A stretch of DNA of 64,000 nt from an uncultured Actinomycetes bacterium (GTDB lineage: Bacteria > Actinomycetota > Actinomycetes > Nanopelagicales > Nanopelagicaceae): the NCBI GenBank assembly GCA_903863015.1, contig CAIPAI010000059.1, forward strand, positions 1 to 64,000. The letters run 5' to 3'. The notes under the pieces are model-generated. The model made no database searches, was not told the origin of the DNA, and saw only the letters and a program-made list of their open reading frames with translations. Positions 17,507-22,502 of the stretch are shown one piece after another. The stretch's first letter is position 1, and every line of letters starts with the position of its first letter. Both the position numbers and the translations under genes were made by a program.

Positions 17507-17580
17507 GCGGGCGTAGTGAAATGGCATCACAAGAGCTTCCCAAGCTTTTAGCGCGGGTTCGATTCCCGTCGCCCGCTCCA
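17507..17580 (+). tRNA. tRNA-Gly (anticodon CCC), CCA encoded
   Basis: Acceptor strands GCGGGCG (17507-17513) and CGCCCGC (17570-17576) pair perfectly. The anticodon arm AGAGC-TTCCCAA-GCTTT gives a 7-base loop with anticodon CCC. The T arm is CGGG-TTCGATT-CCCG. The discriminator is T, followed by an encoded CCA. It lies at the left edge of an island-like segment, and glycine tRNA genes are frequent integration sites, although no matching direct repeat was found at the other end. Confidence 0.95.
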
Positions 17581-17606
17581 CTATTTATGTAGGTGAAAAG
17601 GTCTGC

Positions 17607-17631
17607 CTAGGTTCGAATCCTGGATCCGCCA
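17607..17631 (+). pseudogene. Orphan tRNA 3' fragment (T arm plus acceptor strand)
   Basis: CTAGG-TTCGAAT-CCTGG forms a standard T arm with one T-G wobble, and it is followed by ATCCGCC and discriminator A. A complete tRNA would need GGCGGAT upstream, but no such strand, D arm or anticodon arm precedes it; only about 30 bases separate it from tRNA-Gly. Its sequence differs from the tRNA-Gly 3' end, so it derives from a different tRNA. Such fragments are often left at integration boundaries. Confidence 0.6.
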
Positions 17632-17636
17632 CTAAA

Positions 17637-17658
17637 GGTGGGTTCTTCGGGACCCATC
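17637..17658. terminator. UUCG-loop hairpin between tRNA-Gly and the convergent regulator gene
   Basis: GGTGGGTTC and GGACCCATC pair as a 9-bp stem (two wobbles) closed by a TTCG tetraloop. There is no T-tract after it on either strand, but it sits between two convergent genes and could terminate both ways, as tract-less hairpins are thought to do in actinobacteria. Confidence 0.6.
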
Positions 17659-17690
17659 CGTTATCTGTGCCAGGTGTGTGAGCTATTCGC

Positions 17691-18311
17691 TTAGGCGAGG
17701 CCAAATTCCTGAGCAAGTTTGAGTAGATCCACCTTTGTCTTCGCGCTTCTTCCTTCTGCCCTGAATTTTGCACGAACTCGGTCAACGTATTCGCTGGCGG
17801 TACTCGTGGCAACGCCCATCCGGTTGCCGACCTCTTCCATTGTGAGTCCTGAGGTATAGAGCACGAGTGCTGATTTTTCGCGTTCGGAAAGTTTGAATCG
17901 CGACTCTGGAGCGTTGATTATTCCCGCCACTTGTGGTGAGAGGTAAATACCGCCCGCCAAGACTGTTTGAAGCGCCACTAAAAGTTGGTCAAGGGCCGCT
18001 GTCTTTGTGAAGTATCCACGCGCTCCTGCGGAAAGTACGCTCTTCACAACCGCAGCTTCGCCAAGTGCGCTCATTACAAGAATTGGAATATTCTTTGCAG
18101 CTAGTTGAGAAACAATATTAACTGGTGAGCGCCCATCACCTAGATCAAGATCTACCACTGCGCACACAGGCTTATTCGCTTCGACAGAAAGTAAGGCATC
18201 CTCGAGTGAGGCTCCTGCATATGAAATTTGTGCGCCAACAAGTTCTCGCTCAATACGGGATTTGATCGCATCCAGAACTATCGGGTGATCTTCGAGAATG
18301 AGAATATGCAC
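17691..18311 (-). CDS. NarL/LuxR-family response regulator
   Basis: A 206-residue two-component regulator. The receiver domain begins MHILILEDHPIVLDAI, with acidic residues E7/D8 and phosphoacceptor Asp54 in VVDLDLGDG; the switch Thr/Ser (VMSALG) and Lys (YFTKTAAL) are present. The C-terminal LuxR helix-turn-helix reads KLSEREKSALVLYTSGLTME, then VATSTASEYVDRVRAKF. The start is a GTG preceded by AGGA at 8 bases. It is divergent from the sensor-kinase gene at 18422, an arrangement usual for cognate pairs. Base composition is visibly more A+T-rich than in the flanking core genes, and the gene may have been acquired. Its target is unknown; the hcp-like gene beyond the kinase is an obvious candidate. 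Confidence 0.88.
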   Translation of the reverse strand: MHILILEDHPIVLDAIKSRIERELVGAQISYAGASLEDALLSVEANKPVCAVVDLDLGDGRSPVNIVSQLAAKNIPILVMSALGEAAVVKSVLSAGARGYFTKTAALDQLLVALQTVLAGGIYLSPQVAGIINAPESRFKLSEREKSALVLYTSGLTMEEVGNRMGVATSTASEYVDRVRAKFRAEGRSAKTKVDLLKLAQEFGLA

Positions 18312-18409
18312 GATAATTTTCCTGTCCTGAGAACGAAGGACTAGAGCGCTCTTCGCTATAACCGTATCAGAGTGATGTCAGATTCTGGTTACTTTTATAG
18401 AGATGAAGA

Positions 18410-18415
18410 TACGCT
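18410..18415 (+). promoter_or_regulatory. -10 element TACGCT, leaderless-type start of the sensor kinase
   Basis: TACGCT ends exactly 6 bases before the ATG at 18422, with no Shine-Dalgarno sequence. The identical hexamer with the identical spacing precedes the DUF5318 gene (41797-41792) and the NUDIX gene (46330). Confidence 0.55.
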
Positions 18416-18421
18416 TGCCGT

Positions 18422-20743
18422 ATGAGTAATCGCCTCTTTGGATTCATTCCCGTGCGAGGCGAACTCGACCGCATGGAGCGGGCTAATCAGATCTTCTTTC
18501 ATGTGTACACAACGCTCACATTCTTGGTCCCATGTTGGCTAGTGACGTTTAGCGGTGAGCGGAATATCTGGTTAAAAATTATTTGGCAATTAACTTTCTT
18601 CTTACTCGTATGCACTATTCCTTTTCTGGGAAAGCACTCACTTCGGATAATTCTGTGGGCAATTCCAACTACTGCGCTCCTCATTTCAGCCTTAGCTGTC
18701 CTCATCATTCGCCCATCCCAAGGTAATCGCGACCTCCCACTTACTCTAATTACGCTTTCTGTGGTGCTGTATACGAGCAGCACTTTTCGAGGACTGCGGG
18801 CCTATATTTGGATAGGTATCGCCTTACTTTCGGAGTTGGTGCTTCTTCAGTTTGGCGGTCAATGGTTCGCTGCGCGTGGTTGCATAGTGCACACCATCCC
18901 TGTGGCGGTTATTTTCCACGCCACCGTTGGAGTGTTAGTGAGTGTCGCCTTGAACCGGTCACGTAAACAAGCGGGAACTCTAGATAATGCGTTGGCCGAA
19001 CTGGTATCGGTTAAGTCGTCAATGGATGACAGTTTGCAGCGGGAGAGCGATCGTCAAGACAGGATGCAACGAATTCATGGAGACGTACTCAACACCTTGA
19101 TTGGTTTAGCGAACTGGAGTGGGGAGGTTTCTGCCCAGTTAGCCGAAAGATGCAAGAGCGCAATTTCGCTAAGTTCCGACGTAGCCCCGCCACTAGGAGG
19201 ATCTTTACGGAAATTGTTAGATGAGTGTTTGAGGAAGTTGGATACTCGAGATTTCAAAATTCGCCTCTCTGCGACAGCAGATCTTGTACTTCCGCAGGCC
19301 AGCATCTTGGCTGTGCGCTCCATCGTCGAGGAGTGCATAAGCAATTCAGTTCGCCATTCACAGGGCACATTGATTTCTATTGGCTGGCGTGTCACTCATG
19401 GAAATCAAGTTGAGATTTGGCTCGAAGATGATGGCGTAGGTATTCCCGAAATTATTTCACCGCGCCTTGGCTGGAGCGAGATTATTCTTCCTGCTGTGCA
19501 ACGCCTTGGCGGCACCTCTGCCACGCAGAATCTAGCTGGTTCCGGGGTTCGGTTTTCGTTTAATTTTACCTACTCTGTTGTGGTTGGAATGGAGACAAGT
19601 TCAATTGATCTACTTCGAAATACTTTTAGAGAGCAGGATACTTTTCAAGATCACGCGCTGAGCTGGGCATCTCAGTGGACTGCATATATCTTGCTCATTC
19701 TGACTCCGGTATATCTTTGGTCGGAGGCGAACTGGCGTACACCTGCAATCATTGCTGGCGCTCTATTTCTATATATGACCGCCCTCCTCCGAGCTCCAAA
19801 ATTACATACTTTCTCTACCAACTTAGGTGCCATGCTGATAGCGTGCGGACTTCTACTAGCTGCAGCAAAAGGCATCCCCGGATGTTCAAGCGCCCCCAGT
19901 TTGCAGTGGTTTGCCAATATCGCCGGAACAATTTTCTTGGCTGGCGTTTACCGCTTTGGTTTTCGAGCGCTCTTTATGCAATTCCCGCTCTTTGTTATCA
20001 CTGCGCTCTATGTAGGATCACAACTCTCCTCTATATGTATTCAAGTAATTTCTGTGCCCCTCTACGGCGCGGGCATCTACGGAATAGCGGCTGCTTCACA
20101 TTCAGTTGCAAATGTGCGCCGTCGTAGGTTTGGAGAAGAAGCTCTCTCGCAATTTAGTGAAATTACCACTCTTGAGGAGCGTCGCCTTGAGCAACGCGTC
20201 AGAGATGAAGATCGATGGGAAGATATTCTGAAGGAAACCAATAGCATCTTTAGCAAGGTTGTCGAAGGTCAGAATCTAGACTCACAACTGCGAAGAGATG
20301 CTAGTTTGCAGGATGCTCGGCTCCGCGCACATTTACAGATTGAGGCGATGAATCAGCCACGACTCTTTGGTGTCACCGGGCGACTTATCGATCGAATTAC
20401 TGATCAGGGTTTAGTTCCTACCTTGCAAGTTGGAGTTTTCAGTGATGAAGATATTGACGTTGCCGAGCAAGATTTTGTGGGTCCGCAAGAGGTTGTAGCA
20501 CTTTTAACCAAGGATCTGGAGAAATTTATCGATCGCGCAGCGTTACTTATTGAACGTCACTTGGGAGATAACTTCTTTGCACGTATTTCTGGCGAAACCA
20601 GAGTTAATTTAGACAGTGAATATTCTTTGGGAGCTTGGACCTATAAATCAACTTCCATGACGGAAGGTTTTGGAAGTATTGAAATCACGGTTGCTCCTAA
20701 AATACCGAAACTTCATCCTGACGCATTGAAGTTCGCCGAGTAA
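18422..20743 (+). CDS. Large sensor histidine kinase with two membrane blocks and a kinase-less second half
   Basis: A 773-residue protein. Residues about 25-185 hold the first group of membrane segments. A cytoplasmic helix follows with RMQRIHGDVLNTLIGL (His219), resembling the H-box of the NarX/LiaS-type HisKA_3 family. The ATPase has EECISNSVRHSQGT (N box, about 302) and LEDDGVGIP (G1, about 336). A second membrane block spans about 411-556, then VANVRRRRFGEEAL and a long, charged, helical region to the end without N or G boxes. The second half therefore looks like a repeated sensor-plus-linker that lost its catalytic part, or a separate signalling module. It is divergent from a NarL-type regulator, its likely partner. 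The DNA is A+T-rich compared with core neighbours. Kinase assignment is moderately confident; the second half is not recognised. Confidence 0.75.
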   Translation: MSNRLFGFIPVRGELDRMERANQIFFHVYTTLTFLVPCWLVTFSGERNIWLKIIWQLTFFLLVCTIPFLGKHSLRIILWAIPTTALLISALAVLIIRPSQGNRDLPLTLITLSVVLYTSSTFRGLRAYIWIGIALLSELVLLQFGGQWFAARGCIVHTIPVAVIFHATVGVLVSVALNRSRKQAGTLDNALAELVSVKSSMDDSLQRESDRQDRMQRIHGDVLNTLIGLANWSGEVSAQLAERCKSAISLSSDVAPPLGGSLRKLLDECLRKLDTRDFKIRLSATADLVLPQASILAVRSIVEECISNSVRHSQGTLISIGWRVTHGNQVEIWLEDDGVGIPEIISPRLGWSEIILPAVQRLGGTSATQNLAGSGVRFSFNFTYSVVVGMETSSIDLLRNTFREQDTFQDHALSWASQWTAYILLILTPVYLWSEANWRTPAIIAGALFLYMTALLRAPKLHTFSTNLGAMLIACGLLLAAAKGIPGCSSAPSLQWFANIAGTIFLAGVYRFGFRALFMQFPLFVITALYVGSQLSSICIQVISVPLYGAGIYGIAAASHSVANVRRRRFGEEALSQFSEITTLEERRLEQRVRDEDRWEDILKETNSIFSKVVEGQNLDSQLRRDASLQDARLRAHLQIEAMNQPRLFGVTGRLIDRITDQGLVPTLQVGVFSDEDIDVAEQDFVGPQEVVALLTKDLEKFIDRAALLIERHLGDNFFARISGETRVNLDSEYSLGAWTYKSTSMTEGFGSIEITVAPKIPKLHPDALKFAE

Positions 20744-20787
20744 TATGGGTACGTGCGATAACAAGCGGTGAAATAGCGACAAAAAGT

Positions 20788-20805
20788 GAACAACACCGAT
20801 TGTTC
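20788..20805. promoter_or_regulatory. Perfect inverted repeat GAACAA-N6-TTGTTC upstream of the hcp-like gene
   Basis: Two 6-base arms separated by 6 bases form a perfect dyad about 45 bases after the kinase stop codon. No T-tract follows, so an operator for a dimeric regulator such as the nearby NarL-type protein is as likely as a terminator. Confidence 0.45.
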
Positions 20806-20814
20806 CCGGTCCTG

Positions 20815-20874
20815 TTGCCGCAGCTCAGTGGCAGAATTGGGCTTCTGAACTGCATCGTTCATTCCCGATGGCGA
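20815..20874 (+). ncRNA. Candidate structured leader RNA (perfect three-way junction) of the hcp-like gene
   Basis: Three helices can form with no unpaired bases at the junction. P1 pairs TTGCC (20815-20819) with GGCGA (20870-20874). P2 pairs GCAG (20820-20823) with CTGC (20850-20853) and is extended by CAGAA (20832-20836) with TTCTG (20843-20847). P3 pairs ATCG (20854-20857) with CGAT (20866-20869). P1 has one wobble; the rest is Watson-Crick. The D-arm-like GCAGCTCAGTGGCAG made me test a tRNA, but the T loop and anticodon arm do not fit. No known riboswitch is recognised. Helices are short, so this is a hypothesis. Confidence 0.35.
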
Positions 20875-20894
20875 GATACCAAACCACTTGTTAG

Positions 20895-20922
20895 GCTTTC
20901 GCGACCCTTATTCAACGAAAGC
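20895..20922 (+). promoter_or_regulatory. Hairpin covering the ribosome-binding region of the hcp-like gene
   Basis: GCTTTCG (20895-20901) and CGAAAGC (20916-20922) form a perfect 7-bp stem with a 14-base loop. The 3' arm ends 7 bases before the ATG at 20930 and contains the only purine-rich stretch available for ribosome binding. Folding would therefore hide the translation start. Confidence 0.45.
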
Positions 20923-20929
20923 GGTAAAC

Positions 20930-21481
20930 ATGAAACGATCGATTTTAGTTATGGCACTTGTCGCCGCCATTACGGCTGGCGGAATGAGCGCAGCAAATGC
21001 CGCGCAAGATATGTTTCTCAAAATTGACGGTGTCCAAGGAGATTCACTCGACCGCGCTCATGCGAGTGAAATCGACGTTCTTTCATGGTCATGGGGCGCG
21101 ACTAACTCCGGAACTACCCAAATGGGTGGCAGCGGCGGAGCTGGGAAAACAACCTTCAACGATTTAACAATCACCAAATTTGTTGACTCTTCATCCCCGG
21201 TACTTTTCGCAAACCTCTCAACTGGGAAACATATGAAGACAGCTACGTTGACGGTTCGTAATGCCGGCCAACGGCCCGTTGACTACTACACGCTCACACT
21301 TAATGAGGTAATCATCTCCGCGATCGCCCTATCAGCTAATAGCGGAGATAGTCGCATCAACGAATCTGTGACTCTCGACTTCGCCAGCTACACCTACTCC
21401 TTCCTACCTCTTAAGGCAGATGGAACTCCCAAGCCGGCGGTAGTAACGAAGTTCAGCATCATGGAGAACAGACTGCTCTAG
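20930..21481 (+). CDS. Sec-exported Hcp1-family (type VI tube-like) protein
   Basis: A 183-residue protein. The first 24 residues are a signal peptide (MKRSILVMALVAAITAGGMS, then AANAA). The mature part matches the Hcp fold pattern of the type VI tube protein: DMFLKIDGVQGDSLD, the IDVLSWSWGATN strand, FNDLTITKFVDSSSPVLFA, HMKTATLTVR, YYTLTLNEVIISAI, and ESVTLDFASYTYSFLP. Standard T6SS Hcp has no signal peptide and is loaded in the cytoplasm, so this copy is exported by Sec instead. No other type VI gene is in the window. It lies downstream of the dual-membrane kinase, behind a leader with strong folding potential. A ring-forming surface or extracellular protein is a reasonable inference; function is unknown. 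Confidence 0.82.
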   Translation: MKRSILVMALVAAITAGGMSAANAAQDMFLKIDGVQGDSLDRAHASEIDVLSWSWGATNSGTTQMGGSGGAGKTTFNDLTITKFVDSSSPVLFANLSTGKHMKTATLTVRNAGQRPVDYYTLTLNEVIISAIALSANSGDSRINESVTLDFASYTYSFLPLKADGTPKPAVVTKFSIMENRLL

Positions 21482-21487
21482 TAACGT
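21482..21487 (+). promoter_or_regulatory. -10 element TAACGT, leaderless-type start
   Basis: TAACGT begins just after the stop of the hcp-like gene and ends 7 bases before the ATG at 21495, giving the racemase-family gene its own probable start site without a ribosome-binding sequence. Confidence 0.45.
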
Positions 21488-21494
21488 TGCTCTT

Positions 21495-22502
21495 ATGCGC
21501 ATTACCACTGAGGACTTTCATACCGGAGGCGAACCTTTCCGTATCGTCACCGGCGGCGTACCCGAAATACTCGGCAACACCGTCTTGGAGCGGCGTGAAT
21601 ATGCCACTCATAACGTTGAAGTAGATCGTGTACGTCAACTTCTCTGTCATGAGCCCCGTGGACATGCAGATATGTATGGCTGTTTTGTGATTCCTCCCAA
21701 TGATAAAGGCGCAGATTTCGGCGTGCTCTTCTGGCACAAAGATGGCTACTCCACCGCTTGCGGACATGGCACCATCGCCCTAGGTGAATGGGCCGTGCGT
21801 ACCGGACGAGTACAAGCAGGCGCTGATGGTGAAACAGATGTCACGATCGATGTGCCTTCTGGTCGAGTGACCGCTCGAGTGCGTCGCGTCGCAGGAAAGA
21901 CAGTAGATGTCACTTTCCGAAACGTACCCTCATACGTAGTTGCACGAAACATTGAGATTGAAACTTCACTTGGTCGAGTAGTTGTCGATGTGAGTTATGG
22001 CGGCGCGATGTATGTAAGTCTTGATGCCGCTCTCGTTGGGCTCAAGGTAGATGCAGATCATTATTCGCAATTAATTGCTATTGGACGAGAGATCAAGTGG
22101 CTCTTGAATGATGCACCTGTTGCTCAACATAAGAGTGATCCGCGCTTATCTGGCGTCTATGGAACGATCATTTATGAAGACCTTGGTAAGACAGCGACTG
22201 GAATTCATCAAAGGAATGTCACGATCTTTGCTGATGGAGAAGTCGACCGCTCGCCATGTGGTTCTGGCACAAGTGCCCGGATCGCACTGCTCCACGCCGA
22301 GGGAAAACTGTCAGAGGGCGACGTACTCACGCACGATTCCATTGTGAATTCGCGCTTCCTTGGACGCATTGTGGGCACCGCGAGCGCAGATGGATACGAC
22401 GCGGTAATCCCTGAAGTAAGTGGAAATGCATATCCGACTGGCGAACACACCTTCATCTTTGAAGAAGATGACGAAGTCGGCTTGGGTTTCGTCTTTCGTT
22501 AA
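21495..22502 (+). CDS. Proline racemase / hydroxyproline epimerase family protein
   Basis: A PLP-independent racemase-family enzyme of 335 residues. The N-terminus has DFHTGGEPFRIVTGG and the GHADMYGCF segment. The two catalytic cysteines are both present, in YSTACGHGTIALGEW and RSPCGSGTSARIA. Retention of both cysteines supports racemase or epimerase activity rather than the dehydratase members, which replace one of them. Substrate (proline, 4-hydroxyproline or a related amino acid) cannot be told from sequence alone. There is no Shine-Dalgarno; a TAACGT element sits 7 bases upstream. Base composition returns here to that of the core genes. It converges with the phosphatase gene, which overlaps it by 4 bases. 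Confidence 0.88.
   Translation: MRITTEDFHTGGEPFRIVTGGVPEILGNTVLERREYATHNVEVDRVRQLLCHEPRGHADMYGCFVIPPNDKGADFGVLFWHKDGYSTACGHGTIALGEWAVRTGRVQAGADGETDVTIDVPSGRVTARVRRVAGKTVDVTFRNVPSYVVARNIEIETSLGRVVVDVSYGGAMYVSLDAALVGLKVDADHYSQLIAIGREIKWLLNDAPVAQHKSDPRLSGVYGTIIYEDLGKTATGIHQRNVTIFADGEVDRSPCGSGTSARIALLHAEGKLSEGDVLTHDSIVNSRFLGRIVGTASADGYDAVIPEVSGNAYPTGEHTFIFEEDDEVGLGFVFR

What the first reader, a model, noticed from the sequence alone, without database searches (positions are those of the whole stretch)
17577..21481. Island-like segment pairing a divergent two-component system with a Sec-exported Hcp protein
Between tRNA-Gly and the racemase gene lie a NarL-type regulator, a divergent 773-residue dual-membrane kinase and a signal-peptide-bearing Hcp-family protein, in DNA visibly more A+T-rich than the core genes on both sides. 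Hcp is known as the inner tube of type VI secretion and is normally cytoplasmic before firing. Here it is exported by Sec, with no sheath, baseplate or ATPase gene in the window. The set may be a self-contained, signal-regulated system that builds an extracellular Hcp ring or tube.
Basis: partly seen in the sequence, partly recalled or inferred. Interest (0 to 1): 0.68.

Follow-up and report, generated by a model that had tools for sequence, protein, structure and literature searches.

The report
Exported orphan Hcp beside relocated kinase
A small actinobacterium with no type VI secretion machine carries a copy of that machine's tube protein fitted with an export signal; the sensor genes beside it are a separate set that merely moved in next door, but related actinobacteria also export such tube-protein domains, so the exported tube protein itself deserves a look.

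Summary
The genes are real, but they are not a three-gene system. The Hcp (20930-21481) is a genuine Hcp: Pfam 121 bits, 46% identical to hexameric P. aeruginosa Hcp1, AF2 pLDDT 89, TM 0.94. It has a classical Sec signal peptide, and the genome (99.5% complete) has no TssB, TssC or phage/eCIS sheath.

In two 99%-complete sister species the regulator/kinase pair (87-88% DNA identity) sits elsewhere, between tRNA-Tyr and a mobA-like gene, and no Hcp exists. There tRNA-Gly and the racemase are neighbours, 26 bp between the aligned blocks. In the window a block copied from beside tRNA-Tyr, carrying a 3' fragment of that tRNA, plus an Hcp gene fills that site. The A+T-richness belongs to the kinase pair in every genome; the Hcp gene is of average composition.

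What survives is broader. In a sample of 395 Actinomycetes genomes, 14 have Hcp, and by my signal of those export it: Sec, Tat, or Sec plus collagen-like repeats ending in an Hcp domain. All 24 Hcp-positive actinobacterial genomes tested lack TssC. I found no description of this in the papers searched. Ring formation and function are untested.

The parts
17507..17580 (+). tRNA-Gly (ccc); left edge of the insertion site
   Evidence: ARAGORN; in G001 and G002 the racemase block starts 26 bp after the end of the tRNA-Gly block
17586..21500 (.). Whole insertion (about 3.9 kb) absent between tRNA-Gly and the racemase in sister species
   Evidence: empty sites in G001:C16 and G002:C84
17601..17660 (+). 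3'-end fragment of tRNA-Tyr (variable/T arm and acceptor 3' strand, to about 17633) followed by its terminator-like hairpin (17637-17658); left end of the relocated block
   Evidence: aligned with intact tRNA-Tyr of G001, G002, G003 and with the intact tRNA-Tyr at G000:C57, about 63.7 kb; hairpin
17691..18311 (-). NarL/LuxR-type response regulator, GTG start, 206 aa
18422..20743 (+). Dual-membrane histidine kinase, 773 aa; homology to sister kinases stops at base 20698, so its last residues (about 15) are new
20699..21500 (.). Hcp-carrying part of the insertion, absent from G001/G002; found otherwise only on contig G003:C99 (99.5% identical)
20930..21481 (+). hcp-like gene, 183 aa
   Evidence: PF05638 121 bits; phmmer to P. 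aeruginosa Hcp1 (1y12) E 1.8e-42
20930..21001 (+). Sec (type I) signal peptide, residues 1-24, predicted cut ANA|AQD
   Evidence: sequence; hydropathy 2.78
21002..21478 (+). mature Hcp, 159 aa
   Evidence: AF2 pLDDT 89.0, pTM 0.83; Foldseek 1y12 TM 0.94, 45% identity

Best explanation
Two separate things stand side by side. (1) A regulator/kinase pair that is shared by the sister species of the genus was relocated, together with the 3' end of a tRNA-Tyr, into the gap after tRNA-Gly (shown by comparison; mechanism unknown, no integrase in the insert). (2) An orphan Hcp gene sits at the right end of the same insertion. Its product is made with a Sec signal peptide, crosses the membrane unfolded, is cut after ANA, folds outside into the Hcp barrel and most likely assembles into hexameric rings, as its 46%-identical relative Hcp1 does. 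The rings act outside the cell as a structural, binding or carrier module, not as part of a T6SS. Shown: fold (predicted), signal peptide by sequence, absence of TssB/TssC/sheath, non-linkage with the kinase. Inferred: export in vivo, ring formation, function. It belongs to a recurrent actinobacterial theme of exported Hcp domains (Sec, Tat, collagen-like fusions).
For: Hcp identity; fold. No TssC, TssB or PF04984 sheath in G000; positive controls rang in each search. Non-linkage and empty site. tRNA-Tyr fragment at the block's left end. Same A+T content of the pair at its other locus. Exported Hcps elsewhere in T6SS-less Actinomycetes: Sec in G022, G068, G057, G746; Tat RR motif in G056, G733; Sec + collagen-like + Hcp in G731, G736, G763 (two), G776, TssC absent in all of them. 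The exported ones score 1.7-3.0 for N-terminal hydropathy, four cytoplasmic ones computed alike at most 1.0. The Hcp domain of the G731 fusion is predicted as an Hcp fold (pLDDT 81, best PDB hits all Hcp).
Against: No oligomer was modelled; only monomers could be predicted. The Hcp is on the same strand 186 bp after the kinase, so co-transcription with the kinase cannot be excluded. Signal peptides were judged by eye and hydropathy, not by a trained predictor. Only one species of the genus has the gene (the G003 copy looks mis-binned), so conservation under selection cannot be measured. Of six Hcp1 inner-ring residues needed for cargo binding (L28, A29, S31, T59, S115, T122; PMC8262886) three are kept and three changed (A29S, S115N, T122N).
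Confidence: 0.6

Rival explanations
1. One reading: a self-contained system in which the kinase/regulator pair senses a signal and switches on a Sec-exported Hcp that builds an extracellular ring or tube.
For: All three lie in one insertion relative to G001/G002, and the Hcp follows the kinase on the same strand; the same kinase-tail/Hcp/racemase junction is on contig G003:C99.
Against: The pair exists without Hcp in G001, G002 and related genera; other exported Hcps occur without the pair; the block junction lies inside the kinase gene, not at an operon boundary.
Confidence: 0.1
2. A secreted monomeric Hcp-fold beta-barrel that works as an adhesin or ligand-binding domain and no longer forms rings.
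For: Ring formation is unproved; inner-ring residues S115 and T122 are changed; in fusions the Hcp domain sits on collagen-like stalks, a typical place for a binding head.
Against: 46% identity to hexameric Hcp1 over 157 residues with the barrel intact.
Confidence: 0.22
3. A transferred T6SS Hcp gene that is of no use to its new host and is decaying.
For: Nearest by identity to proteobacterial T6SS Hcps rather than to other actinobacterial ones; found in one species of the genus only.
Against: Intact reading frame, a signal peptide not seen in the T6SS Hcps read, host-like codon use, and repeated export of Hcp domains in the class.
Confidence: 0.08

Closest known systems
T6SS tube protein Hcp/TssD, HSI-I type (P. 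aeruginosa Hcp1, PDB 1Y12)
   Same: Same family by profile, 46% identical over 157 residues, same predicted fold
   Different: Has a Sec signal peptide; no sheath gene in the genome and no other T6SS part beside it; host is an actinobacterium
Orphan hcp / hcp-vgrG loci of Proteobacteria (for example Proteus mirabilis, PMC3764213)
   Same: hcp outside a main T6SS cluster
   Different: Those serve a T6SS encoded elsewhere in the genome; here none was found
NarL/UhpA/MadR-type two-component pairs with a HisKA_3-like kinase
   Same: Response_reg + GerE regulator beside a membrane kinase
   Different: Kinase of 755-773 aa with two membrane blocks and a second, poorly recognised cytoplasmic half; seen here only within the bacterium's own family, the only group searched for it
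Bacterial collagen-like surface proteins
   Same: Relatives in G731, G736, G763, G776 join a signal peptide and collagen repeats to an Hcp domain
   Different: The window protein has no collagen part; an Hcp head on a collagen stalk was not found described in the papers searched

Membership tests
Hcp/TssD protein family (PF05638) | Significant full-length match to the family profile | tested here: met
   121 bits against cut-off 23.5, profile 1-128 of 129; the stricter NCBIfam model TIGR03344 is below its cut-off (48 vs 58.9 bits)
Hcp/TssD protein family (PF05638) | Hcp beta-barrel fold | tested here: met
   AF2 pLDDT 89, TM 0.94 to 1Y12
Hcp/TssD protein family (PF05638) | Hexameric ring | not testable with these tools
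   Only monomer prediction is available; 46% identity to a hexameric Hcp is suggestive
Type VI secretion system | Sheath proteins TssB and TssC in the genome | tested here: not met
   No PF05943 or PF05591 in G000, 99.5% complete; controls positive
Type VI secretion system | Hcp without an N-terminal export signal, assembled in the cytoplasm | tested here: not met
   Sec signal peptide residues 1-24
Other contractile system (eCIS, phage tail) | Phage/eCIS-type sheath gene | tested here: not met
   No PF04984 in G000
   Pair without Hcp in G001, G002 and, as distant pairs, G016, G134, G140; Hcp without the pair in G022
Genomic island by composition | Base composition foreign to the genome | tested here: not met
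   Kinase pair equally A+T-rich at its other locus in sister species; Hcp near average
Genomic insertion relative to sisters | Empty site in close relatives | tested here: met
   G001 and G002 empty sites
tRNA-borne integrative element | Integrase gene and paired att repeats | tested here: inconclusive
   A tRNA-Tyr 3' fragment is present at the left end, but there is no integrase-like gene among the ORFs of the insert and no right-hand repeat was noticed; no dedicated repeat search was run

The most novel reading that the evidence does not exclude
T6SS-less Actinobacteria have repeatedly turned the Hcp tube protein into an extracellular ring module, exported by Sec or Tat and in some lineages mounted on collagen-like stalks (a C1q-like plan); the window's version is a proteobacterial T6SS tube gene taken up and given a signal peptide.
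Probability: 0.35. Interest if true: 0.68.

Novelty: new variant of a known kind. Interest (0 to 1): 0.45.

Why it matters
Hcp is treated as a mark of type VI secretion and is annotated that way. Exported Hcp domains in actinobacteria without a sheath would mean that the annotation misleads, and that a tube protein can be reused outside the cell. A natural Sec- or Tat-exported Hcp and natural collagen-Hcp fusions would also be useful starting points for secreted protein rings. The kinase pair is a plain case of genomic neighbours that only look like a system.

Tried and rejected
Kinase-Hcp linkage: rejected by relatives. Island by composition: rejected. Contractile system elsewhere in the genome: none. 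Phage origin: no close relative in IMG/VR with the single-protein query; three short unannotated phage records only, 29-38% identity. Signal peptide in plasmid Hcps of PGU19 and STM815: the matches started early in the query, but the genes most likely start at MAVDMF/MAQDIF inside T6SS clusters, so not exported. Solved Hcps 4tv4 and 3v4h have 22-25 extra N-terminal residues, which I take, from memory, to be expression tags. Hcp tree: the window protein groups with T6SS Hcps (86/93 and 91/94), but AU tests do not reject a clade with the family's other Sec Hcps (p 0.165) or a T6SS clade without it (p 0.143), and the T6SS rows were picked by similarity to it, so cross-phylum transfer is only suggested. 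Weak hits in G091 and G565 look like oxidoreductases. Promoter scan found nothing. Literature: no paper found on exported Hcp in Actinobacteria; PMC4793230 reports no diderm-type secretion loci in monoderm genomes.

Full report
Observation. The window is bases 1-64000 of contig C59 in a 1.94-Mb Actinomycetes genome (99.5% complete). All named genes are there: tRNA-Gly, a NarL/LuxR-type regulator on the minus strand, a 773-residue kinase with two hydrophobic blocks on the plus strand, and an Hcp-family gene at 20930-21481. The Hcp opens with a textbook Sec signal peptide: MKR, a hydrophobic core, and ANA|AQD (hydropathy 2.78).

The Hcp is real. It matches PF05638 over its whole length with 121 bits, P. 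aeruginosa Hcp1 with E 1.8e-42, and has 72 identities in 157 aligned residues with it (46%). The mature protein is predicted with pLDDT 89 and pTM 0.83, and its best structural match is Hcp1, PDB 1Y12, TM 0.94. Of the inner-ring residues known to hold cargo in Hcp1 (PMC8262886), L28, S31 and T59 are kept while A29, S115 and T122 are S, N and N.

No type VI machine. TssC and TssB are absent, and so is a phage/eCIS sheath. Each search rang in its positive control. Baseplate and ClpV genes were not searched for.

The kinase pair is a different story. In sister species G001 and G002 (both 99% complete) the same pair, 87-88% identical in DNA, lies between tRNA-Tyr and a mobA-like gene, and neither genome has any Hcp. 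In these genomes tRNA-Gly and the racemase are direct neighbours, with 26 bp between the aligned blocks. In the window the homologous block runs from 17601 to 20698. It starts inside a 3'-end fragment of tRNA-Tyr and stops 45 bp before the end of the kinase gene, so about the last 15 residues of the kinase are new. An intact tRNA-Tyr and a second, 26%-identical pair beside mobA are elsewhere in the same genome. Related pairs in other genera (G134, G140, G016) have no Hcp beside them; in G134 and G140 they lie next to tRNA-Gly. The pair is thus an ordinary family feature that was moved, and the Hcp is an addition at its edge.

The G003 copy. Contig G003:C99 carries the same kinase tail, Hcp and racemase at 99.5-99.8% identity. 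G003 also holds the downstream region a second time on C12 at 84%, so C99 looks mis-binned from a strain of the window's species. It still gives an independent assembly of the kinase-Hcp-racemase junction. A contig of the same length with the same gene is public as WLIL01000019.1, an Actinomycetota MAG.

Composition. The 3.9-kb insert is 48.5% G+C against a mean of 51.9%, and only 0.7% of stretches of that size in the window are as low. But the pair is 48.9 and 48.4% in G001 and G002, where it sits in 53.7 and 54.5% surroundings. The Hcp gene is 50.4%, near the window average, with ordinary codon use. Low G+C here is a property of the kinase pair, not a sign of a foreign island.

A wider pattern. 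Hcp is rare in Actinobacteria: 5 of 296 genomes of the family above the cut-off (two of the five hits, one weak and one on the mis-binned contig, should be discounted), 8 of 396 drawn from the phylum and 14 of 395 drawn from the class. The 24 Hcp-positive genomes checked for TssC have none. In the class sample, 9 of the 14 positive genomes export the Hcp domain by my reading: Sec (G000, G057, G746), Tat with an SRRxVLK motif (G056, G733), and Sec followed by collagen-like repeats with the Hcp domain at the C terminus (G731, G736, G763 twice, G776). Pfam sees the collagen repeat above its cut-off in three of the five fusions and below it in two, and Hcp above its cut-off in four of five. Two more Sec versions occur in the window's family (G022, G068). 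The Hcp domain of the G731 fusion is predicted as an Hcp fold (pLDDT 81; best hits all Hcp). G731 and G746 do have a phage-type sheath gene elsewhere, probably prophage or eCIS.

Origin. The window Hcp is nearest to proteobacterial T6SS Hcps by identity and in the tree (86/93, 91/94), but AU tests do not reject the alternatives (p 0.165 and 0.143), and the comparison rows were chosen by similarity to it. Transfer from a proteobacterial T6SS is a lead, not a result.

Mechanism. The best reading is an Hcp made for export: translated with a Sec signal, passed through the membrane unfolded, cut, folded outside, and assembled into hexameric rings that serve as an extracellular module. Predicted fold, signal sequence and lack of a sheath are shown here; export in vivo, ring formation and role are inferred. 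The kinase pair is unlikely to be dedicated to it, though co-transcription over the 186-bp gap cannot be excluded.

Noticed in passing
L064, L069, L071, L072, L074 (genomes G731, G763, G736, G776): Secreted collagen-like proteins with a C-terminal Hcp domain in Actinomycetes without TssC; possibly an undescribed architecture.
   Followed up: partly
L003 (G056) and L068 (G733): Hcp-family proteins with Tat-type signal (SRRDVLK / SRRTVLK).
   Followed up: partly
window 17601-17660: 3' fragment of tRNA-Tyr with its terminator-like hairpin 20 bp after tRNA-Gly, a scar of the relocation.
   Followed up: yes
L035 (G000:C57, about 116.9-119.9 kb); L036, L037, L038: A recurrent regulator/dual-membrane-kinase pair (755-773 aa kinase, divergent genes) in the family, beside tRNA-Gly in G134 and G140, beside pilus-assembly-like genes in G140; no known signal.
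   Followed up: partly
G003:C99 (L034) against G003:C12: Two versions (99.8% and 84%) of one region in one MAG: probable mis-binning of a window-like strain.
   Followed up: partly
L023, L026, L028, L029 (G348): Four different non-exported Hcp-family genes in one actinobacterial genome without TssB or TssC.
   Followed up: no
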